The position numbers were made by a program, and so were the translations under genes. Positions 14,478 to 64,000 of a DNA stretch of 64,000 nucleotides are shown here, piece after piece. The DNA lies in contig CM048846.1 of NCBI GenBank assembly GCA_026545225.1, positions 36,405,501 to 36,469,500 on the forward strand, written 5' to 3'. Source of the stretch: Cornus controversa. Taxonomy: Eukaryota > Streptophyta > Magnoliopsida > Cornales > Cornaceae. The notes beneath the pieces were generated by a model. It had not been told where the DNA came from, ran no database searches, and saw only the letters and a list, made by a program, of their open reading frames with translations. Each line of letters starts with the position of its first letter. Position 1 is the stretch's first letter.

Positions 14478-15388
14478 TGATAGGCGTTGAATGTTACGCA
14501 TTCTAGCCTCTTAACTTATGTATTTTATTCTCTTAGTGATAGATTATTTTGTGATTTTACTTTATTTTAGTGTTTTCTGTATTTTCAGGACCTTAATGAT
14601 TATTTCAGTTAAAACCAAGCGTTTAGGTTTTTAAAGAAGACAACCAAGATGGTGAGATGAAGCCTACATCAAGGAGATTCACTCAACCATTTATTTCAAT
14701 TCAAATCAGCCCAAGAAAGAGGTCCAAGAGAATTACAGCTGCTTAAGAAGGTTTCGGGCCTGAAGCCCAAATCTGCGCATAATACAATCTTAATCCCGTT
14801 TTGATTCTGCACACTTTTGTATTTCACGAAAATTCTATAAATCGGACTTCTAGTGGGTCAAAAGTTGGGCCGAAGTCAGCAGGAAAAACCCACCTGATTA
14901 GTGCTGCGGGAAACCCTAATTTATTCCGAATTGGATTAGGACTTTGGTGTATTCTCTTGGGGAATAAAGTGAAGACTTGGATGCTGAATGAAGGGGGGAT
15001 TGGAGAGAGAGAGAACAGAGCTTGGAGAGTCTGAGAAGAGAATAGAAACATATTCGCAGAGCCATTGGAGAACAAAGTCATACGCGTAATTCAGAAAGAT
15101 GATGTCTTATTCCTCAACAGTTGAAGCTTCTTCTTCTACCATGAGCGGCTAGTTCATCCACTAGGGTTTTGATGTAGCCCTAACAAATCATCAATGGTTT
15201 GATTATTTTAATTATTGGGGACCTTTATATACATGCATAGATTGTGTAATTCAGAGGATTCTTATTATAGAATTGAGCAATAAAAGTCTTGTAAATTCAC
15301 TCTCAACGATTTCTTATCTTGTCTTAGATATTTAGTTGTTGTTATTGAACTCAATCTCTCTTGTTTTCTGTGATCATGAGAGAGATTA
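14478..15388 (+). repeat. E2 5' LTR, 3'-truncated
   Basis: The first 911 bp of the LTR are fused to the T-rich leader of the element. Compared with the LTR at 11353 and the leader of E1, about 524 bp of LTR end and 92 bp of leader, including the primer binding site, are gone. Both deletion ends share TTAT. E2 therefore could not be copied after this loss. The leader from 15389 to 15442 has no gene. Confidence 0.88.
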
Positions 15389-15442
15389 TATTTTATTTTT
15401 AATTTTGTTTTTGTTTTCTTTTCAGGTGCTTTTGGCTAATAT

Positions 15443-17655
15443 ATGCAAGGTCGTCGTTCTGTGGCTGATCCTTTGATACCTCTTGATCCTGAACCTGAAC
15501 GTAATCTTAGACAACAGAGGAACATCCCTGTTGATACAATTGTGCAAGAGGAAGAATTAATTGAAGACGTGGCAGAAGAGAGGAATAATAACCTTGTTCC
15601 TAATGCTGATGGAGAAAGAGCTAGATTGCTGAGGGACTACTATGTTCCTGAGACATATACCTCACCAGCAGGTTTTCAATTGCCTAATGTCACAACACAG
15701 AATTATGAGATCAAGTCCAGCATTATTCAGATGCTACCATCTTATTTTGGACTGACTCAAGAAGACCCTTACAAGCATCTGGATGACTTCATTGAAGTGT
15801 GCTCAACTACAAAAATTCACAACTTCTCTGAAGATGCTTTCAGAATGAGACTTTTTCCATTCTCTCTGAAAGACCAAGCAATGTATTGGTTCAACTCTCT
15901 ACCGGCTGGTTCTATCACGACTTGGACTCAGATGCAACATGAGTTTCTCAAGAAGTATTTTTTGATAGGGAAGACCAATCAGTTCAGACGTGCTATCACT
16001 GGTTTCTCCCAACATCAGGGGAACAATTTTATGAGACATGGGAAAGATTCAAGGACCTTCTTAGGAAGTGTCCCCATCATCAAGTTCCTAAGTGGCAACT
16101 AGTGCAGAGTTTTCATGAAGGGCTGACAGAAGCCAACAGACAGATGGTTGATGCGTCATGTGGAGGTACTTTTATGTTGAAGAGTGAAAAAGAGGCATGG
16201 ACCTTATTTGAAAATCTTAGTGACAACTCTCTACAATATGTATCCTCTACTCGTTCTAGCAGACCTGCCACTACAAGGAAGACTGATGGGATTTTTGAGG
16301 TTGGTGCTTCAGAAGCTATGCCAACTGATATTGATTTAATTGCACAGAAGGTGGCAGCAATTATGGCTGCTAATCAAACTCCTTCTGCTTCAAATTCTTC
16401 ATTGCTAGGCCCTTGTGAATTTTGCTCTAGTCCTATGCATAATGTGAGCAATTGTCCTTCGGTGGGGCAATTTTCTGATATTCAACATGAGCAAGTTCAA
16501 GCTACTTTCACTGGACCAATGAATCCTCCATGAGGTAATACTTACAATCCCACATGGAGGAATCATCCTGGTTTTTCTTACAGTAACCAAGGGGCAGCAA
16601 TGCAACCATCATATCAACCTAGGACTTTTGTGCCTCAACAACAATATCAAACACAAAGTCTTATGGCCCAAAGAATTTCTGCTATTGAAGACAAGCTGAC
16701 TCTTATCTTGTCTAAATTTGACAAGCTTGATTCTCTTATAGAGACAGTGCAAGCTACTGTAGCAACAGTACAATCTATAGTTCAGCTAGTGCACTCGCAT
16801 TCTCAATCCATTGCCAAACTGGAATCTCAGTTTGGACAGCTTGCTACTTCATTATGCAGAAGAGAAGAAGGGAAGCTCCCTAGTCAACCAATTGCTAATC
16901 CAAGAGGGATGCAAGCTTCCACAAGTAACCCACACCATGAGCAAGTTCAAGCCATTACCACTTTGAGAAGTGGGAAAGTAATTGACAATAAGGTGGGTGA
17001 GAAGAAAGAAGAAGAAAAAGTGACCACAAGTCCAAGTGCTGAAATTCCTTATGAGCCCAAGGCTCCTTTCCCACAACGTTTCCTAGAAGCATCTAAATTG
17101 GGAAAGCAAGGGGACAAGCTGCATGACATGATGGAGGTATTTCGCCAAGTGAAGATTAATTTGCCACTCCTTGATGCCAAGCAAATTCCTCCTTATGCAA
17201 AATTTTTGAAGGACTTGTGCACTCAGAAAAGGCATTCTAAAAGCCATGTGCCAAATAAAGTGATGCTGCCACAACAAGTAAGTTCAATAATTCAGCAGTG
17301 TACTCCTCCCAAGTACAAAGATCCTGGTGCTCCAACTATCTCATGCATTATTGGGGAGCACCATGTGGATAAAACTCTTCTTGATTTGGGTGCAAGTGTG
17401 AATTTGCTACCCTATTCAGTCTACTTACAATTGGGCTTGGGAGAATTGAAGCCTACCTCGGTGGTATTATAATTTGTAGATAGATCAACAAAGCAACCCC
17501 GAGGAATCATAGAAGATGTGCTCATTAAAGTGGACAAGTTCTACTTTCCTGTTGACTTCATTGTACTTGACACTGAGCCGGTTCACAATCCAAAGAGGCA
17601 CATTCCAGTCGTCCTTGGTCGACCTTTCTTAGCTACAGATGATGCTTGCATAAAT
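15443..17655 (+). pseudogene. gag-pol: E2 Gag-protease, frameshift and two stops
   Basis: The Gag domain is open from 15443 to a 1-base loss near 16018-16020, after which the frame shifts. It continues from 16102 with stops at 16531-16533 (CGA to TGA) and 17470-17472 (CAA to TAA) relative to E1. It carries the CCHC knuckle (about 16416-16457) and a protease with catalytic Asp at 17383-17385 in DLGAS. The E3 insertion cuts the protease-RT junction at 17655, with the target bases TAAAT (17651-17655) repeated at 28875-28879. On the far side, reading resumes in the same frame at 28880, so E3 entered without other damage. Confidence 0.87.
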
Positions 17656-18021
17656 TGTAAGGACCGGAATTATTTTGACTGGTTCCGGATGAATTTTGAC
17701 CGGATTTATTTTTTTGAATGAATTAAATTCGGAAAGATGTGGATATATATATAGATTGGACGGAGGATGCATATATAGATATATATATATATGGAAATAT
17801 ATATATTTATGTGGGATATATTTATATTAAATTATAAATATATTTATTGAGTACATGCATTATTATATATACACATAAAAGTGTGTATATGTGTGAGCTT
17901 ATATGCAATTATGAAGGAGTGTGGGTGCACATGCAAGATTACAAGTATATGTGCATATGTTATGTATATATATATAATATATATATATATATTTGTGTGT
18001 GGAGGAGAATAAGAAAAAAAT

Positions 18022-18900
18022 GTGTGGTGTATATTTGAGAGAAGCTTCAGCCGAGAAAAGAGAAAAGAAGAAAAGAGGAAAGAAAGAAAAGGAAAAAGAA
18101 AAGAAAAGGAAAAGAAGAAAAGAAAGAGAGAAAAGGTGAGATCGGGAGAGAGAGATCGGGGGAGACCGAGGGAAGCCGAAGGAGAGAGAGGGAGAGCCGA
18201 TCCCGGCGCCGGCGATGGCAGCGGCTGCCGGCTGTTCGCGGTGGCTGAAGCGGCTGTTCTCAGTGGTGATCCTCGGCTGGAACGGTGAGGACTGTGTGGG
18301 TTCTCACGGCTATTTTTTTTCAGTTGGTTCCGGCGACGGCGGCTTGCGGTGGTTGCAGGTGGGTTTGGTGGTGCGAGCTGCCTGGTTCGCGGCTTCGGTT
18401 GAGTGGGTTGGGCTTCGGTTGCTCACGGTGGGTCTGGACTTTCACGGCTGTTTGGACAGCTTATCGGGGTGGCTCACGACGGCAGTGGATGGTTCTCTTG
18501 GCCGTAATTGCTGGGGATTTTGGGTGGTGTTTGGCTCGGGTGTAGCGGTGTTCGATGGTGGATGATTGGGTTGAGTCGTGGGTTGCTTGCTGCCACGGTT
18601 TTAGCTGGCCATTCTAGGTGGATTGAATGGTGGTTCATGACTGGGCAGTGGGCTGTGGAGGTGAGTCGCAGCTATGGCGGACAGCCATGGTGGCTACAGG
18701 GCTGTTGAGCCTTCGACTTCATAGCAGATGGGTCTTCTCGGTGATGGTAGTTCCATGGGAACTCGGCAGTGGTGGCGGCTGGGTATTGTGGTACATGGGC
18801 TGCCGTGAGGATGGTCCTTGGTGGGTCTTTGTGGGCATGGTTTGAGACAGCGATGCTCACGATTTGGGGGCATACATGGACTGTGGATGGGCTGTTTAGC
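18022..18900 (+). other. Purine-rich then GC-rich block in the E3 LTR
   Basis: Following TA-rich DNA, about 150 bp of almost pure A/G leads into a GC-rich part that holds overlapping open frames of 60-116 codons (for example 18215-18565). These frames are also open in the second LTR, but two recent identical LTRs prove nothing about selection. The Trp/Gly/Val-rich translations look like chance readings of G-rich DNA. A transcript leader or captured host DNA are both possible. The copy in the other LTR is at 24946-25824. Confidence 0.5.
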
Positions 18901-20052
18901 TGGGTGTTTGGATTGTTGGTCTTGGAGTACTTGGTTTGGTAGTGTTGCCTAATTGAATTGGGAATTGAAGATCAGTCCATAGATTTTGGAATAGGTTTAA
19001 AAATGGTGATTAGGCTTATTGGGCCAGCTGGGCTTGAGGCTAGAAATGGGCTGATTTTGGTCGGGCCAATGACTGAAATTAGAGTTTTAATTGAGCTGCC
19101 CATCCACGTGAATTTGGCCATGGTGGTTTCAGTTAGCCTTTGGTGGTAGTTTGACTCTGTTGTGGATGTGTTTTCGGTAGTGGGTTCAGACGATTATATG
19201 AGACTGTTTGGACCTTCACTGTTGATGATGCGGGTTGAGACATCGTGGATTGAGAGGTTTGGGCTTGACACGGGACTTGACCGAGCAAGGAAATGGACAG
19301 CTTGGCAGGCACGGACCGGTTGAGAGCTGGACCTAAGGCAAGTTGATTCTTGCCTCTATCTCTTACGTACATTTTATTTATGTTGAGTAATTTACATATG
19401 TTATTAATTTGATCATATGTGATATGTGTATATACATGTATATATAGGTGCTTATATATATGTGGGTATAGGTGGATGTTGTACATACATGGGATATGGG
19501 AGGACATATATATGTGTGTGTATATATCTATGTATGTGCGGGTTTGGGAAGCGATAACATGTTAGATTAATCGCCTGATTGCATTGTGATATGCATGTAC
19601 GTATAGATTAAAGTCTATGTAAAGCATGCTAAATAATACTTGTTTAGCTCTGTGTTGTCTTGTATGCATATGTGGTTCTTATGCATGGTGTTCAGGAAGT
19701 ATATATATGTATGTGATTATATATACGTACGGTTGCAGTGGTATAAATGCATACTAAGTTGAATATAACTTTTGGCGAGCATTTGAAAAGCATGAAATGT
19801 GCTAAGTGTTTTATATGTTCTTGATACATATGTGGGTGATGTAATATATATATGTGTATATGTATACTGTGACTGGAATGCATGTTAGCTACTTGTAATG
19901 AATACATGCATTGAATGAGAGCATGACTATATTTATGCTAGTGTAAGTGCATATGTGATTTATATGCATGATTTGACATGTACGTGTTTACATGTAGGGT
20001 TACGTGAATGAAATGCATGCTATCTGTTTATAGAAAATGTATGCATTGGTTA

Positions 20053-20231
20053 TAGCATGATAAAAATATGCTAAGTTGGGATTGTTTGCATATGTAAGGT
20101 GTTATGCAAGTATTTGGACATATATGTGTTTATATGTGGGAATGTGAATGTGAGATGCGTGCTAGCTTCATATATATATATATATATATATTGAATGTAT
20201 GCATTGGTCCTAGCATGATAAAAACGTGCTA
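20053..20231 (+). repeat. Imperfect ~160-bp repeats with TAGCAT hairpins in the E3 LTR
   Basis: Two neighbouring units carry ATGCATTGG...TAGCATGATAAAAA...TGCTAAGTTG. TAGCAT pairs with ATGCTA (20053-20073) or with GTGCTA through a U-G pair (20211-20231), each with a 9-nt loop. An older unit lies at 19920-19939. E8 has the same hairpin with a 9-nt loop at 57768-57788. The second E3 LTR repeats the set about 6,920 bp downstream. Confidence 0.7.
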
Positions 20232-20576
20232 AGTTGAAGTTGTTGCATATATGAGGTGTTATGCAAGTTTGTGAACATGTATGTGCTATATGTGTTGGAA
20301 TGTGATGAAAAGTATGCCAAATGCTTCTTTTTAGTATTCATAGGCATGGGTTGACGCATGAAAATATCATGTTATGTATATGTGCATCCATATTGCATAT
20401 ATAGGAGGGAAATGACACATACGTGGTTATGTGTGGGTCTATGTAGAGGGGAATGCATGCTATGTATTTATATACTAGCTGGTGCATTGGGATAGCATAA
20501 AATAGAATGCTTAGTTACGTATACATCCATATTGCATATATGGGAGGTTGCGGGAAAATTAACGCAAAAAGAGGTG

Positions 20577-20979
20577 CACGGGACTTCGGAGTGGTCCAAC
20601 CGTGTCACGAGAAGTGGTATAATTATCCACACGTATGGCCCTCGGAGTGGACCCGCCATACGAAGGCTTTATGCCTAGAATCGGAGTGTGTCCAACATTA
20701 GTGAGTTTCAGAGCTGCCCCCTCACAATTTGGCAAACCAATATATTGCCATCGGAATATGTCCAACAAGTATGGCCCTCGGAGTGGACCCGCCATGCACA
20801 GGCCTAAAGCCTGGAATTCGGAGTATGTCCAATGAATGTGAGCCTCGGAGCTGTCCCCTCACATAACGGTAATCCTATACATTGCCAGAGTAGGATGACC
20901 TTTCGGAGTGGTCCAGGTCATAGGATGGTTATCGGAGTTGTCCTAGGTCACATGATCCTCGGAGCGGGTTAATCATGTG
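20577..20979 (+). repeat. CGGAG hairpin array, E3 5' LTR
   Basis: About a dozen CGGAG-type motifs occur in 400 bp. Six sit in 15-nt loops closed by different but matching stems: 20632-20662 (8 bp), 20701-20725 (5 bp), 20769-20797 (7 bp with one G-U), 20836-20864 (7 bp), 20895-20921 (6 bp) and 20949-20979 (8 bp). A seventh (20577-20604) has a 5-bp stem and a longer loop. Small hairpins without CGGAG (20664-20676, 20731-20749, 20799-20813) lie between them. It resembles no feature I know by name. Confidence 0.85.
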
Positions 20980-21953
20980 GGGGTATCGGATGAGGACCGA
21001 GAGTGAGAGTATGTGCAAGCTTTGGTGCTTGTATCATGTATCGGATTATGACCGTAGTAGGTGAAAATACCTTTATGCTTATGTGTTTATCTGTTAAGCA
21101 CGTTTTTATGTTTAAATGCATCTATATTGCATTTGAGATGTGCTACTTGACGAGTAGGAGATGTGGTAGTTGATTTACATCGGTTATGTAAATGTGTTGA
21201 CATATATGTTCTATATACATATTGATGCCTGATGTTTACTGCTTTCAAGCATGTTGAAAATGATTTCTAAAATCATGTATAGTGGATTTTGTATGTTCAT
21301 ATGTGCTAGAGTAGCCATATACATCATTGGTTCATGCATGCTAGGTAGGGCATGGTCTTAAATATGGTGATATATTTAAGTGCATGTATATTTTTGAGAA
21401 TATGTGAGGATCGACCTGCTGCAGCGGTGATAGTATGGTTCTACATACCTTGTTGGGCCTTTGAGCTCACCCCCTCCCAGGTTTTGCAGGTATTGCTGGT
21501 TTTGGAGTTAGTTAGGGGACTGACAGCACCGGTTGCAGAGGTAGTACCTAGATTCCTTAGAATCTAGTGTATATCCAGGATAGTGGATAGATAGATGCTT
21601 TACATTTGGATTAAATGTATAAAGCGATTTATATTGATTCAGTTCCTTCAGTTGTATTTATTCATGTGATGTATGTATTTAATACGGACATTCAAGGACT
21701 GAGGCATGTATATTTATGATTGAATTATGCATGTTGTAGAAATATTAGGGGGACACGTGCCCAGAAGTGTCCATATGAATTGTAAAGCAGGTGTAATATG
21801 CCAGGAGCTGATTATTTAGAATGGGTCATGCCCGATTTTCGTAAAAATAATAGGAAATTGAATTGTATGATCAGGTGGAGGTTATGTCGTGAGGGTGATC
21901 TCACGGGGTTCACACCTCGGTTTCCGGGCCTCGGGAATCGGGGCGTGACAGGA

Positions 21954-21965
21954 TGGTATCAGAGC
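21954..21965 (+). other. E3 primer binding site, initiator Met-tRNA type
   Basis: TGGTATCAGAGC lies three bases after the LTR end and matches the complement of the initiator Met-tRNA 3' end used by many plant chromoviruses. E8 and E0 have the same site. Confidence 0.88.
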
Positions 21966-21966
21966 A

Positions 21967-22186
21967 CTAGGTTGGAACACCTAGGGACGACGGGAATGGA
22001 CATATCATGTGTATGGTTGAGAAGGTTGGATTTTTGTACCTGATACCAGAGTGGTATCTATCAGAGCACTAGGTTGGAATACCTAGGGGCGACGAGTAAG
22101 GGTTGAGGATTCGAGGAACTCTTGATTGCTGTTAAAGCACTAGGTTTGAAAACCTAGGGTATCAAAGTCGTAGGTTCGAATACCTA
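21967..22186 (+). repeat. Amplified CTAGGT hairpin next to the E3 primer site
   Basis: The motif GCACTAGGTTGGAA-ACCTAGGG, an inverted repeat CTAGGT/ACCTAG with a 6-nt loop, occurs at 21967-21984, 22069-22086 and 22140-22157, with a shorter version at 22171-22186. The second copy is preceded by TATCAGAGC, part of the primer site. E8 has only one copy directly after its primer site. Confidence 0.75.
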
Positions 22187-24561
22187 AGGACGGATGGTCA
22201 AATCACGTGATGGTTTGGAGATAGGCAATGGTTGATAGTTGTCTAGATGATATGTTTGGTTACATATGGACGGTAGTGGAATGATCTGCTCGGTTGGAGC
22301 AATCCTAATGAAAGATCAAAGTGTTGGTATGAAATTGAATTCAGTTGGTAAAACTCCCAGAGTTGGTTGAGTTTAGACATTTGATTTGGTGATTAAGTCT
22401 CATTAGTGAGCAACGAAGAGATACCGCAAGGAAATTTGCGAGTGTTTAAGTCCTTAGAAATACTTAGGGACTTATGAGATTGATGAGTGTTTTGCCTGGG
22501 TTGGCAATTGAGATTGAGATGGGATACAAGGAAGGCATATTGCCGGAGTTGGGCTAACTGGGAAAAGTGGCCTGGCCAGACATTTTTCTTGGATTAGTGC
22601 TTCTCTTACAATACGTCGGCTCTTGTGGATGTTGAGTTGTTTCGTCCGGATGACGATGGATAAAGAATTCCCAATGGTAAGGATATGTCACTGAAAGTGA
22701 TTGGTATTGATAGTCAAGGTTGCTGCCTTAGACTATAGAAGCGGATAGATTGGTAGGTGTTTACCAATGGGTACAGAGGATGAGAGTAGGTTGGTTTGAA
22801 CCACTCTAGATGTTGTGTTCCAGTATGTGTGTATACTAGGGGGACTGGGCCGTATTTTACACGCTTGCTCAGGCAGAGGAGGTACCAGGACCGTGTATGG
22901 TCAAGGGTATTTTCCTAGTATTAGCCCGAGGGCTAGGGGTTTGATTTATGCATCATATGTCATATCATGCATGGTATGTGTTTATTTGATTAGCATGTTG
23001 TGTGTTATATGCTATGTGGTATATGTGATTCATGTAACTGAGCATTGCATTTTTAGTGTTGCATTTTGTGTCACATGATTAGTAGTGACATGTAGTCACC
23101 TAGAGAGTTATGGTTTTGAAAACTTGTGAACCTGGGTAGAGGTTTGAAACCGAGTGAACTGTGATGTTGAAATAGACACGTAGTGATGGACTTTGAGAGT
23201 ATAAGTCTAGAATTGTGGAGAAAGGTATGGTTTACCTTGTGGCTTCCCAAACCAAGAGTTTGAAGGGTTTGTGGGGTCCTAGACGAAGCAGTCAGGATCT
23301 TGGGATCTCAAAGGAGATGTTGGAAAGGAATGGATAAATACCCGAAAAGCCAGAAACGTCCGTTAGGATTAATGGACGAGTGAGTAAATTGGATTCATTC
23401 CTTAGGAAATGAGATTGTGAAGTTAAGGGTATGTAAAACCCAAATCTTGGCACTAAATGCCAATGGAATGTAGTCCACCAAAAATGGGCAGGACTAGATG
23501 ATTTGTTTTGACAAGTGCACTCTTTATGTGCCTTGACCTTAGTGGAGTGTTGTGATATACACATGATTGATGCAGTTAGATCATAGTGTGGATATGATGT
23601 TAAGAGAAGGATGGGTTGATAGTGGATGAGGATCCTGACATATGGTATCTGAAGTGAGGATAATTTCTTGCCGTGAAGGGGAGAGGTGGATGTAGTGGAC
23701 GTGTAGACGCAGTGGGCTGTGGCCACTGTATGGCTGCTGTTTGGCTACTGTAGGTGACCTCAAACTTTCATTGGTAAGGGTTGTCTATGGTGAAGTGCTA
23801 ATATGAAAGGAATTCTCTCTAACTATCAACTGGTTCCTTGGTGTGAAAGATGAAAATGGGAAATGGATCTCCTCTGGAATAAAGAGATTGTGAAATCAGT
23901 GGGATGTGAGATCCTGGACTTGGCATTGGATTCCAGTGGGTTGTAGTCTATGAGACTGGGCAGGATTATGTGGCTTGCTGCGGTAAGTACACTGTTCGTG
24001 TTATTTTTATCGGCGAGTACACTGTCATGTGCCTTGCTGGTGAGTGCGCTTGTGATGTGCACTGGATTGATGTGGTTTGTGTTGTGATGATGCCCAGGAT
24101 ATTGGACTAAGCCCGGGAATGATATGCTAGAGATTGAAAGTCATGTCTGATAATAAAAGAATGACTTTGAGTATTGATGATCCTGGATTATAGGGAAGTA
24201 TCACTGTGAGTGATTGGTATGATTAGTCAAAGGTGTTGCCTTAGACTAGAGATAGAGATTGACTGGATAGGTCTTGAGATAGAGACTGTGGACTCTGCGA
24301 AGCAAGTGCTTCAGAGGATTTCGTGAGTGAACCGTACATGGGCTTAGGAGTCACTCAGCCATGTCACGGAAGTGGTTCTATTGCCTTACGGCAGTCGAGA
24401 TGCACTGTTGTGCAAGACTTGAGAGTTATGAGTTAGGGGTTGCAAGTGTAGCGCCTAGAGTATGTGGAAAGAGAAAGTGACGATCATTGGCGAGAATGAC
24501 GTCTGGTAAGGTTGGTTTTGCAAAGACCATGACTATGCTAATTTCGAGGACGAAATTCCTT

Positions 24562-24575
24562 GAAGGAGGGGAGGT
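24562..24575 (+). other. E3 polypurine tract
   Basis: GAAGGAGGGGAGGT lies directly before the 3' LTR start TGTAAGGACC. It is of the AAGGAGGGGAG type common in Tekay/Del-like elements. Confidence 0.82.
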
Positions 24576-24882
24576 TGTAAGGACCGGAATTATTTTGACC
24601 GGTTCCGGATGAATTTTGACCGGATTTATTTTTTTGAATGAATTAAATTCGGAAAGATGTGGATATATATATAGATTGGACGGAGGATGCATATATAGAT
24701 ATATATATATGGAAATATATATATTTATATGGGATATATTTATATTAAATTATAAATATATTTATTGAGTACATGCATTATTATATATACACATAAAAGT
24801 GTGTATATGTGTGAGCTTATATGCAATTATGAAGGAGTGTGGGTGCACATGCAAGATTACAAGTATATGTGCATATGTTATG

Positions 24883-24916
<34 letters not shown>

Positions 24917-27900
24917 TTGTGTGTGGAGGAGAATAAGAAAAAAATGTGTGGTGTATATTTGAGAGAAGCTTCAGCCGAGAAAAGAGAAAAGAAGAAAAGA
25001 GGAAAGAAAGAAAAGGAAAAAGAAAAGAAAAGGAAAAGAAGAAAAGAAAGAGAGAAAAGGTGAGATCGGGAGAGAGAGATCGGGGGGGACCGAGGGAAGC
25101 CGAAGGAGAGAGAGGGAGAGCCGATCCCGGCGCCGGCGATGGCAGCGGCTGCCGGCTGTTCGCGGTGGCTGAAGCGACTGTTCTCAGTGGTGATCCTCGG
25201 CTGGAACGGTGAGGACTGTGTGGGTTCTCACGGCTATTTTTTTTCAGTTGGTTCCGGCGACGGCGGCTTGCGGTGGTTGCAGGTGGGTTCGGTGGTGCGA
25301 GCTGCCTGGTTCGCTGCTTCGGTTGAGTGGGTTGGGCTTCGGTTGCTCACGGTGGGTCTGGACTTTCACGGCTGTTCGGACAGCTTATCGGGGTGGCTCA
25401 CGACGGCAGTGGACGGTTCTCTTGGCCGTAATTGCTGGGGATTTTGGGTGGTGTTTGGCTCGGGTGTAGCGGTGTTCGATGGTGGATGATTGGGTTGAGT
25501 CGTGGGTTGCTTGCTGCCACGGTTTCAGCTGGCCATTCTAGGTGGATTGAATGGTGGTTCACGACTGGGCAGCGGGCTGTGGAGGTGAGTCGCAGCTATG
25601 GTGGACAGCCATGGTGGCTACTGGGCTGTTGAGCCTTCGACTTCATAGCAGATGGGTCTTCTCGGTGATGGTAGTTCCATGGGAACTCGGCAGTGGTGGC
25701 GGCTGGGTATTGTGGTACATGGGCTGCCGTGAGGATGGTCCTTGGTGGGTCTTTGTGGGCATGGTTTGAGACAGCGATGCTCACGATTTGGGGGCATACA
25801 TGGACTGTGGATGGGCTGTTTAGCTGGGTGTTTGGATTGTTGGTCTTGGAGTACTTGGTTTCGTAGTGTTGCCTAATTGAATTGGGAATTGAAGATCAGT
25901 CCATAGATTTTGGAATAGGTTTAAAAATGGTGATTAGGCTTATTGGGCCAGCTGGGCTTGAGGCTAGAAATGGGCTGATTTTGGTCGGGCCAATGACTGA
26001 AATTAGAGTTTTAATTGAGCTGCCCATCCACGTGAATTTGGCCATGTTGGTTTCAGTTAGCCTTTGGTGGTAGTTTGACTCTGTTGTGGATGTGTTTTCG
26101 GTAGTGGGTTCAGACGATTATATGAGACTGTTTGGACCTTCACGGTTGATCATGCGGGTTGAGACATCGTGGATTGAGAGGTTTGGGCTTGACACGGGAC
26201 TTGACCGAGCAAGGAAATGGACAGCTTGGCAGGCACGGACCGGTTGAGAGCTGGACCTAAGGCAAGTTGATTCTTGCCTCTATCTCTTACGTACATTTTA
26301 TTTACGTTGAGTAATTTACATATGTTATTAATTTGATCATATGTGATATGTGTATATACATGTATATATAGGTGCTTATATATATGTGGGTATAGGTGGA
26401 TGTTGTACATACATGGGATATGGGAGGACATATATATGTGTGTGTATATATCTATGTATGTGCGGGTTTGGGAAGCGATAACATGTTAGATTAATCGCCT
26501 GATTGCATTGTGATATGCATGTACGTATAGATTAAAGTCTATGTAAAGCATGCTAAATAATACTTGTTTAGCTCTGTGTTGTCTTGTATGCATATGTGGT
26601 TCTTATGCATGGTGTTCAGGAAGTATATATATGTATGTGATTATATATACGTACGGTTGCAGTGGTATAAATGCATACTAAGTTGAATATAACTTTTGGC
26701 GAGCATTTGAAAAGCATGAAATGTGCTAAGTGTTTTATATGTTCTTGATACATATGTGGGTGATGTAATATATATATGTGTATATGTATACTGTGACTGG
26801 AATGCATGTTAGCTACTTGTAATGAATACATGCATTGAATGAGAGCATTACTATATTTATGCTAGTGTAAGTGCATATGTGATTTATATGCATGATTTGA
26901 CATGTACGTGTTTACATGTAGGGTTACGTGAATGAAATGCATGCTATCTGTTTATAGAAAATGTATGCATTGGTTATAGCATGATAAAAATATGCTAAGT
27001 TGGGATTGTTTGCATATGTAAGGTGTTATGCAAGTATTTGGACATATATGTGTTTATATGTGGGAATGTGAATGTGAGATGCGTGCTAGCTTCATATATA
27101 TATATATATATATATTGAATGTATGCATTGGTCCTAGCATGATAAAAACGTGCTAAGTTGAAGTTGTTGCATATATGAGGTGTTATGCAAGTTTGTGAAC
27201 ATGTATGTGCTATATGTGTTGGAATGTGATGAAAAGTATGCCAAATGCTTCTTTTTAGTATTCATAGGCATGGGTTGACGCATGAAAATATCATGTTATG
27301 TATATGTGCATCCATATTGCATATATAGGAGGGAAATGACACATACGTGGTTATGTGTGGGTCTATGTAGAGGGAAATGCATGCTATGTATTTATATACT
27401 AGCTGGTGCATTGGGATAGCATAAAATAGAATGCTTAGTTACGTATACATCCATATTGCATATATGGGAGGTTGCGGGAAAATTAACGCAAAAAGAGGTG
27501 CACGGGACTTCGGAGTGGTCCAACCGTGTCACGAGAAGTGGTATAATTATCCACACGTATGGCCCTCGGAGTGGACCCGCCATACGAAGGCTTTATGCCT
27601 AGAATCGGAGTGTGTCCAACATTAGTGAGTTTCGGAGCTGCCCCCTCACAATTTGGCAAACCAATATATTGCCATCGGAATATGTCCAACAAGTATGGCC
27701 CTCGGAGTGGACCCGCCATGCACAGGCCTAAAGCCTGGAATTCGGAGTATGTCCAATGAATGTGAGCCTCGGAGCTGTCCCCTCACATAACGGTAATCCT
27801 ATACATTGCCAGAGTAGGATGACCTTTCGGAGTGGTCCAGGTCATAGGATGGTTATCGGAGTTGTCCTAGGTCACATGATCCTCGGAGCGGGTTAATCAT

Positions 27901-28874
27901 GTGGGGGTATTGGATGAGGACCGAGAGTGAGAGTATGTGCAAGCTTTGGTGCTTGTATCATGTATCGGATTATGACCGTAGTAGGTGAAAATACCTTTAT
28001 GCTTATGTGTTTATCTGTTAAGCACGTTTTTATGTTTAAATGCATCTATATTGCATTTGAGATGTGCTACTTGACGAGTAGGAGATGTGGTAGTTGATTT
28101 ACATCGGTTATGTAAATGTGTTGACATATATGTTCTATATACATATTGATGCCTGATGTTTACTGCTTTCAAGCATGTTGAAAATGATTTCTAAAATTAT
28201 GTATAGTGGATTTTGTATGTTCATATGTGCTAGAGTAGCCATATACATCATTGGTTCATGCATGCTAGGTAGGGCATGGTCTTAAATATGGTGATATATT
28301 TAAGTGCATGTATATTTTTGAGAATATGTGAGGATCGACCTGCTGCAGCGGTGATAGTATGGTTCTACATACCTTGTTGGGCCTTTGAGCTCACCCCCTC
28401 CCAGGTTTTGCAGGTATTGCTGGTTTTGGAGTTAGTTAGGGGACTGACAGCACCGGTTGCAGAGGTAGTACCTAGATTCCTTAGAATCTAGTGTATATCC
28501 AGGATAGTGGATAGATAGATGCTTTACATTTGGATTAAATGTATAAAGCGATTTATATTGATTCAGTTCCTTCAGTTGTATTTATTCATGTGATGTATGT
28601 ATTTAATACGGACATTCAAGGACTGAGGCATGTATATTTATGATTGAATTATGCATGTTGTAGAAATATTAGGGGGACACGTGCCCAGAAGAGTCCATAT
28701 GAATTGTAAAGCAGGTGTAATATGCCAGGAGCTGATTATTTAGAATGGGTCATGCCCGATTTTCGTAAAAATAATAGGAAATTGAATTGTATGATCCGGT
28801 GGAGGTTATGTCGTGAGGGTGATCTCACGGGGTTCACACCTCGGTTTCCGGGCCTCGGGAATCGGGGCGTGACA
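24576..28874 (+). repeat. E3 3' LTR (4,299 bp)
   Basis: Same content as the 5' LTR, offset by about 6,920-6,924 bp, including the hairpin array at 27501-27903 and the purine-rich and GC-rich blocks. It ends GGGGCGTGACA and is followed by the target copy TAAAT (28875-28879). Confidence 0.93.
27501..27903 (+). repeat. CGGAG hairpin array, E3 3' LTR
   Basis: Copy of the array in the 5' LTR with the same stems. Here one motif reads CGGAG where the 5' LTR has CAGAG (20709-20713), which restores the consensus loop. Confidence 0.85.
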
Positions 28875-56798: not shown

Positions 56799-57232
56799 TG
56801 TAGAGACCGTGACCAATTTTGGCCGGTTTTGCATTTTTCGCATTATAATCGCCATAAATGCATTTTGAGTGGTGATTAGCATGTTTCGAGTGTGAGGAAC
56901 ATGTTTAGGAAGTGTTTTTAAGGTTTTGGGAAATTTTCAGGAGATTTGGAGAAGTTTGACTTTTTGGTCAAACCGGGGCCCGGGGTGCGACTTAAGTGGG
57001 CCCGGGAATCCGGAAAATTTTTGAAAATATTTATTTTTGAGAATGGCTGAGATGAAATGTTTAGAGAGTAGAGGAAGTGATTTCGAGACCGTATGAGTTT
57101 TCGGAATCGAAAAAGGAGTCCGGGAAGGTACGTTAAGTGGCCCGGGGGTATTTTGGTCTTTTTGCAAACCCTAGATATTTTAAATATCAGTGGCAGAGTT
57201 ATTCAGCCATATCTCACGCCTCTTTCTCTCTC

Positions 57233-57238
57233 TATAAG
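57233..57238 (+). promoter_or_regulatory. E8 LTR TATA box
   Basis: TATAAG preceded by CTCTTTCTCTCTC and followed by a CT-rich start region, the usual layout of a plant LTR promoter. Transcription would then begin near 57265, placing the hairpin array in the RNA leader. Confidence 0.6.
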
Positions 57239-57993
57239 TTCTCCATCTTCAAAGCTCTCCCTTCTCTCTACATTTCGGACCCGTTCGGCTTGGATTCAAG
57301 ACTCGCCGAAGGAGGGAGATACGTAGGGGACGGCTAGGGCTTCCTTTTGAACCGAACAAAGTGGTGATTCGGCAAGGTAGACTCCGCTGGAAAATTGGTG
57401 AAGTGCTTGGAAGGCCTTCATTTTCGAGGTAGGGGTTCTTCTTCTCTTCTAATTGTTGATTCTAGGGTTTCGGGTGAAGGAGAGAGGTCTAGGTTGTGTT
57501 TCACATGCTTTAGGATGGTGAGAGGTGTAGAAAGTTATGTTTTCTTCTTCTCTAGAGTCCTGTCTTTTCACAATTGTGTATATTGTGTTGGTGGTAGCAT
57601 GTGGGTTTGAAGTATATGAGTGTAAGAAATTGATACATAGGCATTATGTGCTCAATTTGATGTATATGTGGAAAAATGTGTATCAAGTGTCATATATGTG
57701 ATTATATGTGGGAATGTGGTTGTTGAATGCATGTTTAGTTCTATGTGCTAAAATTATGCATTGAATGTAGCATGAGTAAAATATGCTAATTTTGAAGTTG
57801 TATGCATATGAGATGATATATGCATGTGTTTTACATATATGTGCTATATGTGGTGTGTGGTGATGGAAAATATGCTTGTTACCTCTTTTTAGTATCAATG
57901 AGCATGAAGTAGTGCATGAAAATAAAATGCCATGTGTTTATGCATTCATATTGCATATGTGGGAAGTTGTGGGAAAAATGACGCAAAAGAGGT

Positions 57994-58318
57994 ACACGGG
58001 GCTTCGGAGTAGTCCAACCGTGTGGTGAAATGTGGTAAAATTATCCACTATGTATGGCCCTCGGAGTGGACCCGCCATACTAAGGCTTAATGCCTAGGAT
58101 CGGAGTATGTCCAATACTAATGACCTTTCGGAGTTGTCCTGGTCATAGGATGATTATCGGAGAATGTCCATGACTTGTGAGCCTCGGAGTTGCCCCCTTA
58201 CTCTAGGGCAATCCCATATATTGCTATGGTAAAATGACCTTTCGGAGTTGTCCCGGTCATTGGATGATTATCGGAGGTGTCCAAGGTTACATGATCCTCG
58301 GAGCGGGCCAATCATGTA
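57994..58318 (+). repeat. CGGAG hairpin array, E8 LTR
   Basis: Stems closing 15-nt loops that contain CGGAG: 58052-58080 (7 bp), 58120-58146 (6 bp), 58177-58201 (5 bp with one G-U), 58234-58260 (6 bp) and 58288-58318 (8 bp). A sixth at 57994-58023 has a 6-bp stem and a longer loop. Small spacer hairpins occur at 58083-58095 and 58207-58225. The order matches E3, with two pair changes that keep pairing. Confidence 0.85.
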
Positions 58319-59170
58319 TGGTATCGGATGAGGACCGAGAGAGAGAGCATTTACTCACTTTAATGCTTTTATGTTTGAACATGTTGTACATGATTTGTGA
58401 AATATGCAATCCTCTTTAATTGCATTTGTTGATGTGTTTGTGAGATTGTGGACGTGGCATGTAGTGTATTCATATGCATTCCATGTAGGTCGTGTCGGGT
58501 CGGCACTTAGAAGGGTTGGGGAACCTTTACTGAGCCGCAGTGGTGCTCACCCCTTTATTCTAAATATTTTACAGATAAAGCGCCGATGACGGATGGGACA
58601 TGAGTGTCTAAGTGGAACACTAGTGGTGGTTTTGCTATCTTTTGAGTTTTGGAGCATTTTTGTGGCTATCCATGCCGGCTTGTGGCATGTGACTTATGTT
58701 TTGAGTTGTGGTTGGACCTTGGACATATGTACTTTTGATGTATGTATTGGATTATAAACTTGTTGGGTGTGAAAAGACAACGGTTTAATATATGTAGCGC
58801 CCATGGTGGCATTTTATTCATTTTGATGATGTTTTCATTTTGAATGGGTTGTGTGCGTGAAAGAAATGATTCATTTTGGTGTATGGATTCAATTATGAAA
58901 GTGGTTTGAGTGTGAGATTGGTGTTTTGGAAATGAATTTGGAAATCAAGGTTGGTTCATACACTTGAGTTTTGGGTGTATTGTGAACCTAGGGAAATTTC
59001 TATGATTATGCAAGATTTGAGATTCAAATGTATAGGTTGATGTGCGAGCATGATTTTATATCAATGGTAGATGATTTATATGAAATATGAATGATCTAAG
59101 GTGGTTTGGTTGAGATTTGGATTCAATTTGATCTTGTATAGGTGTTTGAGAATTTCCGGGCAGTGCATTT

Positions 59171-59380
59171 CGATTAATCGAAATGCCCATTTCGATTAAT
59201 CGAGATGCCCATCTCGATTGATCGAAATGGTTGCGAGATTTTATGTGTTTTCAGGCCTTATTTCGATCAATCGAAGTCCCAGTTTCGATTAATCTAAATA
59301 ATGCAGGTCCAAGATACCGAGAGGGTGTTTGCTAATCGAGATGCATTTCGATTGATCGAAATGCCAATTTCGATTGATCG
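59171..59380 (+). repeat. CGAT-NN-ATCG inverted-repeat cluster, E8 LTR
   Basis: Seven copies start at 59171, 59193, 59215, 59264, 59286 (last base changed), 59349 and 59371. The first extends to a 22-bp palindrome (59165-59186). NN is TA, TG or CA, as in E0. Confidence 0.85.
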
Positions 59381-59764
59381 AAATTACTATTCACAGCTTT
59401 TTCCAAAACTTCATTTCGACGTAATTTCTTCGTTCTAGATCGGAATTGAGCGTGGTTTTTTTTGAACTTGAGTATTTTTGGATTCTCTATCCAATGGTGT
59501 AAGTATCAGTTCCAGATTCCAATCACAGAAATTTTGAGACTCGAAAGTGAGTGATTCTTAAAAGTGTGGGCGTGTAAATGTTCACTAAGGTGTGTGATTT
59601 GATGTAGGGCCCATGGGGGTTGGTTAAGATGGATTTGTGTGCATTCATATGCAAGAATTAGGTTAAGCTTCCGCAGGGAATAAGGGTAATGAGGGTCCAT
59701 TGGGACTAATGGACGGGTTAACCTCCGGTTGCCCGGGAGACGGGGAATCGGGGCGTTACAGAAA

Positions 59765-59776
59765 TGGTATCAGAGC
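59765..59776 (+). other. E8 primer binding site, initiator Met-tRNA type
   Basis: TGGTATCAGAGC four bases after the LTR, followed at once by one CTAGGT/ACCTAG hairpin. The leader 59777-60023 has no gene. Confidence 0.88.
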
Positions 59777-60023: not shown

Positions 60024-63000
60024 ATGCCTCCAAGAAGAGCGCGAGACATTGGCGCTGATGCTCCTCAGGAGCCAACTGATGGAACGCAATTTATGCGTGA
60101 CATGGCTGATACTATGAGAAGAATGGCTAGGGAAGCCAGGGAAGAGAAGGTTCAGGCATTTCCTAGGGTTGCCTTGAGCCGACAAATGGTAGCAATGAAG
60201 GAATATGTGAAATTTAAGCCGCCTACTTTTGATGGCGCGCGTGATCCGCTTGTGGCTGAGAATTGGATAGACCAAACTCACAAACTCATGGATGCTCTTG
60301 CAATCGATGAGGATTTGAAAGTGGGAGTAGCGGCGCTTCACTTACAAGGAGAAGCTGATCGGTGGTGGCAATTCATCGGGAATATCCATAACACTGAGAC
60401 TATGGACTGGGAGACCTTTAAGGGTTTATTCTTTGACAAGTTCTTTCCGGCTTCGGTGAAAGACCGGATGAGGCAAGAGTTCATAGACTTAGTCCAAGGG
60501 GACTTGGATGTGATGGGGTACGAGACCAAATTCACATCATTGGCTCGCTTTGCCCCAGAAATGGTAGCTAATGAAGAGCTAAAGGTGAAAAAGTTTGTGA
60601 AGGGACTGAAAACCTCTATCAGAAAGAGGGTGTCCATCTTGGGTTTGAGGACCTACAGTGAGGTGGTTGATAGAGCCTTGGTGGCTGAGGAGGATGACAG
60701 AGACACTCAGAGGTTATGGGACTCTAGACAGCAAGCTAAGGGTACGGGTACCTCTTCGAGTGGTCATGGGAGGAAAAGAAATAGGGAAGGCAGATCAGGT
60801 TCACAGGGGCAGCAGCAGACTCGCCCAGTACCTTCATTGTCCTTACCTACTGGATCTGCACGATCCACAGTTGTGTGCTATCATTGCCAGCAGTCTAGCC
60901 ATTTTCGTTCTGAGTGCCCTCAAAGGCAAATAGTGGCATCTGTGCCGGTAGCTTCGGTGGGGGAACGGGTATGCTTTCATTGCAAGCAATCCGGCCATGT
61001 TAGGGCCAATTGTCCACAGAGACAGAGTACACCGAGTGGTATGGGGACTCAGCAGAGGGCTGGGCAGACAGCTACGGTACAGTCTGGTTTTAGGACATTA
61101 CCGCCACCTCATCCAGCGCATTCTGTACAGGGATCTCGGGTAGCGAGAGGTTCCATGCCTGCTTCTAATCAGCAGTCAGGGTTACAGGGGACTGGTCAAC
61201 AGTCACGGGGCCGTGTGTTCACGCTTGCTCCGGCAGAGGATGTACCAGGACCGTCAGTGGTCAGAGGTATTTTCCTGGTTTCTAGCTCGTGGGCTAGGGT
61301 GTTGATAGATTCAGGTGCATCACATTCATTCATATCTGTTGCATTTGCTTGTGCCTTGGGGCTGCGGGTGTCATCACTGGAGTCACCATTGTCCATTGAT
61401 ACACCGGTTGGGGGTAGGGTTACCCTGGATAGAGTGTGTCGGTCTTGCGAGATCGAGGTTGCTGGGCGTCGACTAGTGTTCGACTTTGTGTTACTAGACA
61501 TGACCACTTTTGATGTCATTCTAGGTATGGACTGACTATCTACATTTAGAGCCACGATTGATTGTCTCCGTAGGAGAGTGACAGCGTGCACACCCGAGGG
61601 TGATTGCTTTTATTTTGTGGGAGAACGGGATGATTTCTACGTTCCGTCTCTGTTTGGTTCCTATGTGAAGGATGGGGTTGGATATTTCCTAGCTAGCTTG
61701 TTAGCCAAGGAGGATGAGATTGTGACTAGTGGAGGGTTTCCACCGGTGGTTAGAGAGTTTGTGGATGTGTTCCCGGAGGACTTGACAGAGTTACCTCCGA
61801 TGAGAGATGTGGTATTTAGCATTGATCTTGCTCCTGGTACCGCGCCTATCTCTATGGCACCGTACCGGATGGCACCGGCAGAGTTGATGGAGTTGAAAGA
61901 TCAATTGCAAGAATTATTGGATAAGGGATTTGTACGACCTAGTACATCGCCTTGGGGAGCTCCGGTCCTTTTCGCTAAAAAGAAGGACGGATCTTTACGG
62001 TTATGCATAGACTACCGTAAGTTGAACCAAGCAACAATTAAGAACAAGTATCCTTTGCCAAGGATAGATGACTTGTTTGATCAGCTTAAGGGTTCAACAT
62101 GTTTTTCAAAGATCGACTTGAGGTCGGGGTATTACCAGTTGAGGGTAAGGGAAGAGGACATTCCGAAGACAGCTTTTCGGACTAGATATGGCCACTACGA
62201 GTTTCTAGTGATGCCATTTGGATTGACGAATGCACCGGCAGCGTTCATGGATTTGATGAACCGAATATTCAGGGTGTACTTGGATAGGTTTGTGGTGGTC
62301 TTCGTGGATGACATTCTTGTGTATTCTTCTTCTATGGAGGAGCATGAGATCCATTTGAGGACAGTGTTGCAGACATTGAGAGAGCACCGTTTGTATGCCA
62401 AATTTGAAAAATGTGAATTTTGGCTAATGGAGGTGAAGTTCCTAGGACACGTGGTGTCAGAAGGAGGAGTATCGGTAGACCCTTCTAAGATAGAAGCGGT
62501 AATGGATTGGGAGAGGCCTAAGAGCGTATTCGAGATACGTAGCTTCTTGGGGTTGGCAGGATATTACCGGCGCTTCGTGAAAGACTTTTCGAAGTTAGCG
62601 GCGCCGATGACCAAACTTACTCGTAAAGGAGTTAACTTTGAGTGGAACGAGGCTTGCGAGCATTCCTTTATGGAATTGAAGCGTAAATTGACTAGTGCTC
62701 CAATATTGATTATTCCCGAGCGCAGTTTGGGTTATGTCATATACTGTGATGCTTCACGGGATGGTTTGGGATGTGTATTGATGCAGACCGAGAGGGTTGT
62801 TGCATATGGTTCCCGACAGTTGAAGATCCACGAGCAGAATTACCCGACTCATGACTTGGAGTTGGCGGCGGTAATTTTTGCTTTGAAAACGTGGAGGCAT
62901 TATCTCTACGGAGAGAAGTTTGAAGTTTTCTCCGGTCATAAGAGTTTGAAGTACCTTTTTACGCAAAAGGACTTGAATATGAGACAGAGGAGATGGGTTG

Positions 63001-64000
63001 AATACATGGAAGACTACAACTTTGATCTTCAGTATCACCCGGGGAAAGCTAATGTGGTTGCCGATGCATTGAGCAGGAAATCACATGGTACTTTGGCTAG
63101 CATCACCATTCGTGAATGGAAGATGATGGAAGACATCTCAGAAATGGGATTGTGCTTCAGTGAGAGTGATGGACATGCCACTTTGTTCACACTCATAGTG
63201 CAACCAACTCTAGTGAGTAGGGTGGTTGAGGAGCAGAGGCATGACACAGAGTTAGAGAGCATTCGCACTCAGATTACAGGTAGCGAGGCAGTGGAGGATT
63301 GGGTTATCCATTCAGACGGAGGTCTGAGGTTCAGAGGCAGAATGGTTGTTCCATTGGCTTGTAGGGATGAGGTCCTGAGGGAGTTTCATAGCTCCAGACT
63401 TGCAGTACATCCCGGTGGTACCAAAATGTACCACAACTTTCGTAGACAGTATTGGTGGAAGGGCATGAAAAAGGACGTCGCACGGTTTGTGGCGAGGTGC
63501 CTCACTTGTCAACAAGTGAAGGCCGAGCATCAGAGACCGGCAGGTTTGTTACAGCCCTTACCGGTAGCTATGTGGAAGTGGGAACACGTTACTATGGACT
63601 TTGTGACGGGGTTACCTAGGACAAGGAAGAGTCATGATGCAGTTTGGGTCATTGTAGATAGGTTGACCAAGGTGGCTCATTTCCTTCCTATTCGAGTGAC
63701 AGATGATGTGGATACCCTTAGTCGGTTGTATATTGATCAGATTGTGAGACTGCACGGAGTGCCAGTTTCCATTGTGTCTGATAGAGATCCGAGATTCACA
63801 TCACGATTTTGGCAGAGTTTTCAGGCTGCACTTGATACGAACCTCCATTTCAGTACGGCTTTCCATCCCCAGACAGATGGTCAGTCAGAGCGTACTATAC
63901 AGATTTTGGAGGATATGCTTAGAGCATGTGCACTTGATTTTCGGGGTAGTTGGGAGGATCACCTTCCATTGGTGGAGTTCGCATACAATAATAGCTACCA
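60024..64000 (+). pseudogene. gag-pol: E8 Gag-Pol polyprotein with one stop codon, incomplete at window end
   Basis: One frame of 1,325 codons in view, broken only by TGA at 61533-61535, where both E0 copies keep a Trp codon (TGG). Gag occupies about 1-250; zinc knuckles of spacing CX2CX4HX4C start at residues 285 and 317. Protease has DSGASHSFIS with catalytic Asp at codon 429. RT carries CIDYRKLN and FVDD (first Asp codon 62307-62309). RNase H has its first Asp in YCDASRDG (62748-62750). Integrase shows the zinc-binding region with CLTC near 63499, and the catalytic triad codons at 63597-63599 (Asp), 63780-63782 (Asp) and 63888-63890 (Glu), spaced 35 residues between the last two. Gag would form particles, RT/RNase H copy the RNA, and integrase insert it. 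The stop lies just after the protease active site and would prevent RT synthesis unless read through. The start Met has the same MPPRRARDIGA as E0. Confidence 0.93.

What the first reader, a model, noticed from the sequence alone, without database searches (positions are those of the whole stretch)
20577..20979. Hairpin array with a constant CGGAG loop and variable, self-matching stems in chromovirus LTRs
In E3, six hairpins have loops of exactly 15 nt with CGGAG near the loop start (typically CCTCGGAG-GG-CCC), but each stem sequence differs (CGTATGGC, GTGAG, ATGTGAG, ATGACC, CACATGAT and others) and each pairs with its own partner. E8, whose LTR is largely different, has the array in the same order at 57994-58318. 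Pair changes keep pairing: the outer C-G of the 20949-20979 stem is T-A at 58288-58318, and an A-T pair in a GTGAG stem becomes a G-U type pair at 58179/58199. Both copies are downstream of the likely start of transcription in E8, so the array would sit in the RNA leader. Roles in packaging, dimer formation, translation or protein binding are open. I know of no description of such an array.
Basis: partly seen in the sequence, partly recalled or inferred. Interest (0 to 1): 0.87.

Follow-up and report, generated by a model that had tools for sequence, protein, structure and literature searches.

The report
Palindrome array in plant retrotransposon LTRs
Many retrotransposon copies in this plant genome carry the same array of short self-matching DNA motifs around a fixed core; the matching arms have been kept by selection, but the data do not show that they work as RNA hairpins, and a role as binding sites in the DNA fits somewhat better.

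Summary
The hairpins are real. With the loop fixed at 15 nt, 6 of 11 core units tested in E3 and 5 of 9 in E8 have stems of 5-9 bp; the others have 0-2 bp. The loop pattern has 2706 genome matches, its reversed control 11.

Of the two pair changes cited, the G-U at 58179/58199 is private to E8's 5' LTR (1 of 30 copies). The C-G/T-A outer pair holds between E3- and E8-type copies but not in a third, diverged group. The TATA that would put the array in the RNA leader is private to that copy; a TATA conserved in the E8 family lies downstream of the array.

In 63 non-redundant arrays the arms are the most constrained part (internal/terminal changes 0.21, spacers 0.56, P=2e-8). Compensatory double changes are modestly in excess (12 vs 5.1, P=0.014), carried mainly by two pairs. 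G-U and A-C changes are equally common, which argues against selection on a sense-strand RNA helix.

Best reading: a conserved cis-acting array of dyad-symmetric elements in Tekay-like LTRs, comparable to Sirevirus palindromic motif clusters. RNA packaging is an open rival.

The parts
17655..21950 (+). E3 5' LTR (4.3 kb; 99.2% identical to the 3' LTR; alignment coordinates, the TG start may be 17656)
   Evidence: self-BLAST; ends and PBS read
24575..28874 (+). E3 3' LTR, carrying the second copy of the array (27500-27904)
21954..21965 (+). E3 primer binding site (TGGTATCAGAGC, tRNA-iMet type; identity of the tRNA recalled)
20576..20605 (+). H1 hairpin of E3 (6 bp, loop 18)
20632..20662 (+). 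A2 hairpin (8 bp, loop 15)
   Evidence: best covariation
20664..20676 (+). short hairpin C1 (AGGC/GCCT)
   Evidence: read; homologous pairs in E8 coordinates counted
20701..20725 (+). A3 hairpin (5 bp, loop 15; core CAGAG here, CGGAG in the 3' LTR)
20730..20750 (+). short hairpin C2 (TGGCAA/TTGCCA)
20769..20797 (+). A4 hairpin (7 bp including a G-U present in 35 of 35 rows, loop 15)
20799..20813 (+). short hairpin C3 (CAGGC/GCCTG)
20836..20864 (+). A5 hairpin (7 bp, loop 15)
20868..20886 (+). short hairpin C4 (GGTAAT/ATTGCC)
20895..20921 (+). A6 hairpin (6 bp, loop 15)
20948..20980 (+). A7 hairpin (9 bp, loop 15)
20681..20992 (+). stemless B units with the same core, TCGGA at 20681, 20751, 20818, 20932 and 20986
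56799..59760 (+). E8 5' LTR (2962 bp; 98.3% identical to the 3' LTR outside the window)
59765..59776 (+). E8 primer binding site
57993..58024 (+). H1 hairpin of E8 (7 bp, loop 18)
58052..58080 (+). A2 hairpin of E8 (7 bp, loop 15)
58120..58146 (+). extra ATGACC/GGTCAT hairpin of E8 (6 bp, loop 15)
58177..58201 (+). A5 hairpin of E8 (5 bp; the G-U is private to this LTR)
58206..58226 (+). short hairpin C4 of E8
58233..58261 (+). A6 hairpin of E8 (7 bp, loop 15)
58288..58318 (+). A7 hairpin of E8 (8 bp, loop 15)
58753..58759 (+). TATAAAC, the only TATAWA motif found in 60% or more of the E8-family rows (23 of 30), downstream of the array; candidate promoter, unproven
21618..21624 (+). TATAAAG of E3 (TATAWA in 28 of 30 rows), also downstream of the array; candidate, unproven, one of several in E3
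60024..63998 (+). E8 gag-protease and pol (RT, RNase H, integrase zinc domain above cut-off; integrase core below it), Ty3/gypsy order; Gag with one CCHC zinc knuckle above cut-off and a second seen in the sequence

Best explanation
The array is a conserved cis-acting element of Tekay-like LTRs: 10-12 tandem copies of a TCGGAG..(G)TCC core, about every other copy flanked by unit-specific inverted arms at a fixed spacing (shown). It is kept by purifying selection acting chiefly on the arms (shown, by a parsimony contrast). Most likely it works at the DNA level, as a cluster of dyad-symmetric binding sites for host proteins that drives or tunes transcription of the element, as proposed for the palindromic motif clusters of Sirevirus LTRs (inferred). 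Sharing by the gag-pol-coding E8 and the non-coding E3 fits a function that is needed in cis (inferred).
For: Self-matching arms at fixed geometry. 2706 loop matches against 11 in the control. E3 has an internal region of 2.6 kb with no ORF above 144 aa (not scanned against profiles), yet shares the array at 81-85% with E8; the other similar stretches are a 70-79% block upstream, the LTR end with PBS, PBS-like repeats inside E3 (22059-22202) and a 0.1-kb internal stretch that falls in E8's gag-protease ORF. Arms: internal vs terminal changes 48/225, spacers 213/378, odds ratio 0.38, P=2e-8; without C>T/G>A changes 19/88 vs 137/195, odds ratio 0.31, P=8e-6. Pairing type: G-U 13.2 vs A-C 13.7 on internal branches, 67 vs 65 on terminal ones (with another choice of pairs 12 vs 15 and 71 vs 68); 101 vs 100 cells. 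A DNA site expects this parity, an RNA helix does not. Local folding is not better on the sense strand: z -1.52 to +0.25 sense, -2.84 to -0.56 antisense, antisense lower in 7 of 8 arrays. A conserved TATAWA lies downstream of the array in both families. Precedent: PMC2829016 and PMC10760457 (passages).
Against: The arms differ between units of one array (GTATGGC, GTGAG, ATGACC, ACATGAT), which is odd for one dimeric factor. Double changes that keep the pair are in mild excess, and C-G/T-A at the outer pair of A7 between E3- and E8-type copies fits pairing too. E3 also has conserved TATAWA motifs upstream of the array (20469, 30 of 30, and more), and the start of transcription is unknown. No CpG island (CpG o/e 0.74-0.78, the rest of the LTRs 0.62-0.90), unlike Sireviruses. 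No binding or expression data.
Confidence: 0.45

Rival explanations
1. RNA-level array: the hairpins form in the element's RNA and present GGAG in their loops to the CCHC zinc knuckles of Gag, as a modular packaging or dimerisation signal shared by coding and non-coding families.
For: The stemmed loops hold GGAG (or its decayed form AGAG); tandem CCHC knuckles of HIV-1 NC and Lin28 bind GGAG in loops (PMC7599994, PMC3759924, passages). E8 Gag has a CCHC knuckle and a second visible. A2 pair 2 changed A-T to G-C three times as a complete double change, with only G-T otherwise seen (2 of 63) and no A-C; E=0.012 among 55 pairs. Doubles 12 vs 5.1, P=0.014. The outer pair of A7 is C-G or T-A in 72 of 80 E3- and E8-type copies. 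Wherever the promoter lies, the LTR array would be in the RNA at one end or the other (general LTR biology, recalled).
Against: G-U and A-C changes equally frequent. Without two pairs the excess of doubles is P=0.17; on internal branches alone 3 vs 0.5, P=0.17. No stem pair stands out among all column pairs. Whole-array folding z -0.03 and +0.53; local folding relatively better on the antisense strand in 7 of 8 arrays. In PMC7599994, replacing the GGAG loop of the HIV-1 Psi hairpin did not significantly affect packaging.
Confidence: 0.25
2. Mutational origin: the palindromes arise and are kept symmetrical by template switching within quasi-palindromes during reverse transcription or replication, without a function of their own.
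For: Would give complete double changes without intermediates and no G-U preference, as seen for part of the changes.
Against: The deficit of transmitted changes in the arms is large (48 seen; about 127 expected at the spacer ratio, worked out), whereas only 3 doubles on internal branches were seen, too few for correction to explain it. The arms stay recognisably the same across the three groups of arrays.
Confidence: 0.1
3. Silencing interface: the palindromes form hairpin RNA that feeds small RNAs, so they are targets of the host rather than tools of the element.
For: Small RNAs are in excess over palindromic clusters of maize Sirevirus LTRs (reported in PMC10760457, passages).
Against: Predicted structure is weak here, and selection conserves the arms, which the element would be expected to lose if they only harmed it. 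[quoted passage not shown]
Confidence: 0.1

Closest known systems
Sirevirus (Ty1/copia) LTR repeated palindromic motifs (PMC2829016, passages)
   Same: Cluster of many dyad-symmetric motifs in a plant LTR with a CGG-type core, in LTRs that are otherwise very divergent; 8-32 copies per element there, 3-14 of them in the LTR; 10-12 cores here.
   Different: This element is Ty3/gypsy. Within one Sirevirus element one consensus palindrome is repeated; here the core is constant and the arms differ from unit to unit and lie outside a 15-nt core. No CpG island here.
Maize LTR palindromes with the CACCGGACNNNGTCCGGTG motif (PMC10760457, passages, citing Bousios et al. 2016, which was not read)
   Same: Palindromes in LTR cis-regions, discussed as both regulatory and small-RNA-producing.
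   Different: There in Copia/RLC (and Helitron) elements; Ty3/RLG elements generally had no obvious peak of structure.
GGAG loops bound by CCHC zinc knuckles (HIV-1 NC-Psi hairpin, Lin28-pre-let-7; PMC7599994, PMC3759924, passages)
   Same: GGAG in a hairpin loop, and a Gag protein with CCHC knuckles.
   Different: No binding shown here; loop of 15 nt, several copies in a row; strand-specific RNA selection not seen.
Non-autonomous large LTR elements (LARD-type; name recalled)
   Same: E3: long LTRs, short non-coding internal region, PBS kept.
   Different: The array links E3 to a gag-pol-coding element.

Membership tests
Sirevirus palindromic RM cluster | host element is Ty1/copia Sirevirus | tested here: not met
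   E8 pol order RT, RNase H, integrase, i.e. Ty3/gypsy
Sirevirus palindromic RM cluster | cluster of dyad-symmetric motifs in the LTR | tested here: met
Sirevirus palindromic RM cluster | one palindrome repeated within an element, CGG-CCG core | tested here: not met
   arms differ between units; core is CGGAG..TCC or CCC
Sirevirus palindromic RM cluster | lies upstream of the TATA box | tested here: inconclusive
   conserved TATAWA downstream in both families; others upstream in E3; start of transcription unknown
Sirevirus palindromic RM cluster | defines a CpG island | tested here: not met
   CpG o/e 0.74 and 0.78, the rest of the LTRs 0.62-0.90
Tekay/Del chromovirus (E8) | Ty3/gypsy pol order and PBS at the LTR end | tested here: met
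Tekay/Del chromovirus (E8) | chromodomain after integrase | tested here: inconclusive
   a chromodomain-like end is visible in the L032 ORF (judged by eye), but Pfam gave no Chromo match; no RT tree was made
Structured RNA with covariation | more compensatory change than a phylogenetic null | tested here: inconclusive
   1 of 55 pairs; doubles P=0.014, P=0.17 without two pairs
Structured RNA with covariation | G-U preferred over A-C in helices | tested here: not met
Gag-bound packaging signal | nucleocapsid binding and presence in packaged RNA | not testable with these tools
   only the GGAG loops and CCHC knuckles are seen
Rfam family | match to a described RNA family | tested here: not met
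   no gathering-level match in either array

The most novel reading that the evidence does not exclude
The array is a modular RNA signal: hairpins present GGAG loops to the tandem zinc knuckles of Gag, and non-coding elements such as E3 keep it in order to be packaged by the Gag of coding relatives. I know of no such array described for a plant Ty3 element.
Probability: 0.18. Interest if true: 0.8.

Novelty: new variant of a known kind. Interest (0 to 1): 0.5.

Why it matters
Regulatory or packaging signals of plant Ty3 elements are little known (recalled), and their LTRs are hard to align. This array is a conserved, countable landmark, probably in hundreds of copies or more (inferred from 2706 loop matches), shared by a coding and a non-coding element, with arms under measurable selection. 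It makes the question of what a non-coding LTR element must keep in order to be mobilised testable by reporter, binding and probing assays.

Tried and rejected

Considered and left open: that the array is intronic. E8 has GAG|GTAGGG at about 57430 (GAGGTAGG 29 of 30) and TTTTACAG at about 58574 (28 of 30). E3 has AAG|GCAAGT at about 19338 (28 of 30) and TTTTGCAG at about 21489 (28 of 30). No transcript data; E3's donor lies in a hairpin of its own.

Led nowhere: a viral-contig scan for one loop with its arm (0 hits); family-internal covariation in copies 95-100% identical (too little variation, and copies chosen by array similarity); low array diversity as evidence (biased by that choice). Nearly all diverged copies were reached through one query, L073 (40 hits scored of 2165 candidates; besides L073 and L080 I fetched 37 of the other 38). 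A further query with L115 did not complete.

Limits: parsimony on one FastTree tree; the MAFFT alignment of spacers may inflate their internal changes; the 63 rows are those left of 115 (E3, E8 and 113 loci) after dropping near-duplicates by shared 9-mers; L113 and L118 were left out beforehand. The 40 core pairs are my choice from the stems of E8; the outer pair of A7 is not among them, though it is among the 55. The E3 coordinates of C1 used were one base off; that row is not used. Searches counted E8's 5' LTR twice (as E8 and L001); one search corrects the count used here. TATA and splice motifs of E3 were sought only in 19070-21990.

Full report
WHAT IS THERE. The window lies in a 772-Mb assembly, a plant by its contents (inference). 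E3 is an LTR element with 4.3-kb LTRs (17655-21950, 24575-28874; 99.2% identical), a PBS at 21954 and an internal region of only 2.6 kb with no ORF above 144 aa: by all signs a non-autonomous element, though its ORFs were not scanned against profiles. E8 has a 2962-bp LTR (56799-59760; 98.3% to its 3' LTR), a PBS at 59765, and gag-protease and pol of Ty3/gypsy order. Its C-terminal ORF looks chromodomain-like by eye, but Pfam did not report a Chromo domain, so 'Tekay' is likely, not proven. E3 and E8 share a 70-79% block upstream of the array, the array itself (81-85%), the LTR end with PBS (90%), PBS-like repeats inside E3, and a 0.1-kb stretch inside E3 that matches E8's gag-protease ORF.

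THE ARRAY. Units with a TCGGAG-type core follow each other; about every other unit (A) is flanked by arms that pair across a loop of exactly 15 nt, and the units between (B) have none. Stems are 8, 5, 7, 7, 6, 9 bp in E3 and 7, 6, 5, 7, 8 bp in E8, and 0-2 bp in the other 5 of 11 and 4 of 9 units given to (one search lists 14 and 10 core positions; the four not given have 0-1 bp). Dealing the right arms anew among units lowers the summed stems from 43 to 10.9 and from 36 to 10.2. In 20 loci that I chose for varied unit spacing from the 100 places listed, 73 of 155 units have a stem of 5 bp or more with their own partner, against 71 of 1124 swapped combinations. The loop pattern CCTCGGAGNNGNCCC has 2706 exact matches in the genome, its reversed control 11. 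Short hairpins (AGGC/GCCT; GGCAA/TTGCC) and H1 belong to the array too.

The T at 58199 that makes a G-U pair is found in 1 of 30 E8-family copies, E8's own 5' LTR; its 3' LTR has C (the count of 2 of 31 counted this copy twice). It is a mutation after insertion. The outer pair of the last hairpin is C-G in 37, T-A in 35, T-G in 2 and unpaired in 6 of 80 E3- and E8-type copies, many near-identical, so that change is real. Over 63 arrays that include the third group it is C-T in 23, C-G in 17, C-A in 8, T-A in 6, C-C in 5, T-G in 2 and others in 2, so it is not maintained throughout.

WIDER SAMPLE. Copies close to E8 and to E3, 20 loci of contig C1 and 37 diverged loci found with L073 were reduced from 115 to 63 non-redundant arrays. 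Differences between groups appear: A2 pair 2 is A-T in 34, G-C in 27, G-T in 2; A6 pair 2 is T-A in 32, C-G in 24, T-G in 3, C-A in 2, others or gaps in 2; A6 pair 7 is T-A in 36, A-T in 8, T-G in 1 and unpaired or gapped in 18. On the tree, A2 pair 2 changed from A-T to G-C three times, once for a whole clade and in L092 and L117.

COVARIATION TEST. An R-scape-like null (substitutions redistributed on the tree; own script) gives E<0.05 for 1 of 55 annotated pairs (A2 pair 2, E=0.012); A6 pair 2 has E=0.36. Among all column pairs nothing is significant: the best is a non-stem pair with E=2.1, and A2 pair 2 has E=9.4. Complete double changes number 12 in 40 core pairs (3 on internal, 9 on terminal branches), against 5.1 when left sites are matched with right sites of other stems (P=0.014; internal alone P=0.17, terminal alone P=0.045); without A2 pair 2 and A6 pair 2, 8 against 5.1, P=0.17. 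So there is some compensation, resting mostly on two pairs. Single changes keep or break pairing no better than with swapped partners (G-U 79 vs 86.7, broken 134 vs 141.2).

SELECTION. Changes on internal branches were transmitted by transposition; those on terminal branches are mostly decay (interpretation). Per site, terminal changes are alike in arms (2.88) and spacers (2.80), but internal ones are 0.62 and 1.58. Arms against spacers: odds ratio 0.38, P=2e-8; leaving out C>T and G>A changes, odds ratio 0.31, P=8e-6. Cores and the rest of the loops are also lower than spacers (P=0.001, 0.007), but not when C>T and G>A are left out (P=0.49, 0.71); arms against cores, P=0.08. The arms are thus the part most clearly kept.

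DNA OR RNA. If a sense-strand RNA helix were selected, G-U should be tolerated better than A-C. They are equal: 13.2 vs 13.7 on internal and 67 vs 65 on terminal branches, 101 vs 100 cells. Whole-array folding is ordinary (z -0.03 and +0.53). With pairs limited to 45 nt, eight arrays give z from -1.52 to +0.25 on the sense strand and from -2.84 to -0.56 on the other, lower on the other strand in 7 of 8. The TATA that would place the array in the leader is a one-base insertion in 1 of 30 copies, E8's 5' LTR; the one TATAWA found in 60% or more of that family is at 58753, downstream. E3 has conserved TATAWA both upstream (20469, 30 of 30, and others) and downstream (21212, 27 of 30; 21618, 28 of 30). 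Possible splice sites around the array leave an intronic position open.

COMPARISON. The nearest published thing that I found is the palindromic repeated motif cluster of Sirevirus LTRs (PMC2829016, passages), with its discussion as a regulatory region and small-RNA source in maize (PMC10760457, passages). [quoted passage not shown] Here the host element is Ty3-type, the core is constant and the arms vary by unit. For the RNA rival the precedent is GGAG bound by tandem CCHC knuckles (PMC7599994, PMC3759924, passages). Nine answered library searches listed no description of this array in titles or abstract starts; five of them matched more papers than were listed, and most subscription papers are not held.

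VERDICT. A real, conserved and unusual array; the hairpin-in-leader story is not established and part of its stated evidence falls. Interest 0.5; new variant of a known kind.

Noticed in passing
window 17655-28874: E3 has 4.3-kb LTRs and a 2.6-kb internal region without an ORF above 144 aa; neighbouring arrays of related loci lie mostly 6.6-7.0 kb apart, which suggests a whole family of this kind.
   Followed up: partly
window 57431-58574 and 19338-21489: Conserved splice-site-like motifs flank the array in both families (GAG|GTAGGG..TTTTACAG; AAG|GCAAGT..TTTTGCAG), so the array could be intronic.
   Followed up: partly
window 2342-2447, 15981-16085, 40168-40273, 46294-46399: Four matches to the plant snoRNA family snoR71 inside repeated segments of the window.
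   Followed up: no
window 34865-48283 and 8228-15389: Large tandem duplications: 34865-42155 vs 40992-48283 at 99.9%, and 8228-12264 vs 11353-15389 at 99.0%.
   Followed up: no
G000:C5:787408-806858: Four E8-family arrays follow each other at 5.65, 5.65 and 7.8 kb, as in tandem elements sharing LTRs.
   Followed up: no
L063 and L068: Arrays differ in number of units; L068 has an additional unit with a 10-bp stem (TTTGATGACC / GGTCATCAGG) that is broken in L063.
   Followed up: no
L073 and L083-L119: In the diverged group the A2 and A6 arms are nearly alike (GTATGAC, GTATGAT), suggesting the two units are old duplicates whose arms drifted apart in E3 and E8 (the print was cut in the middle).
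   Followed up: partly
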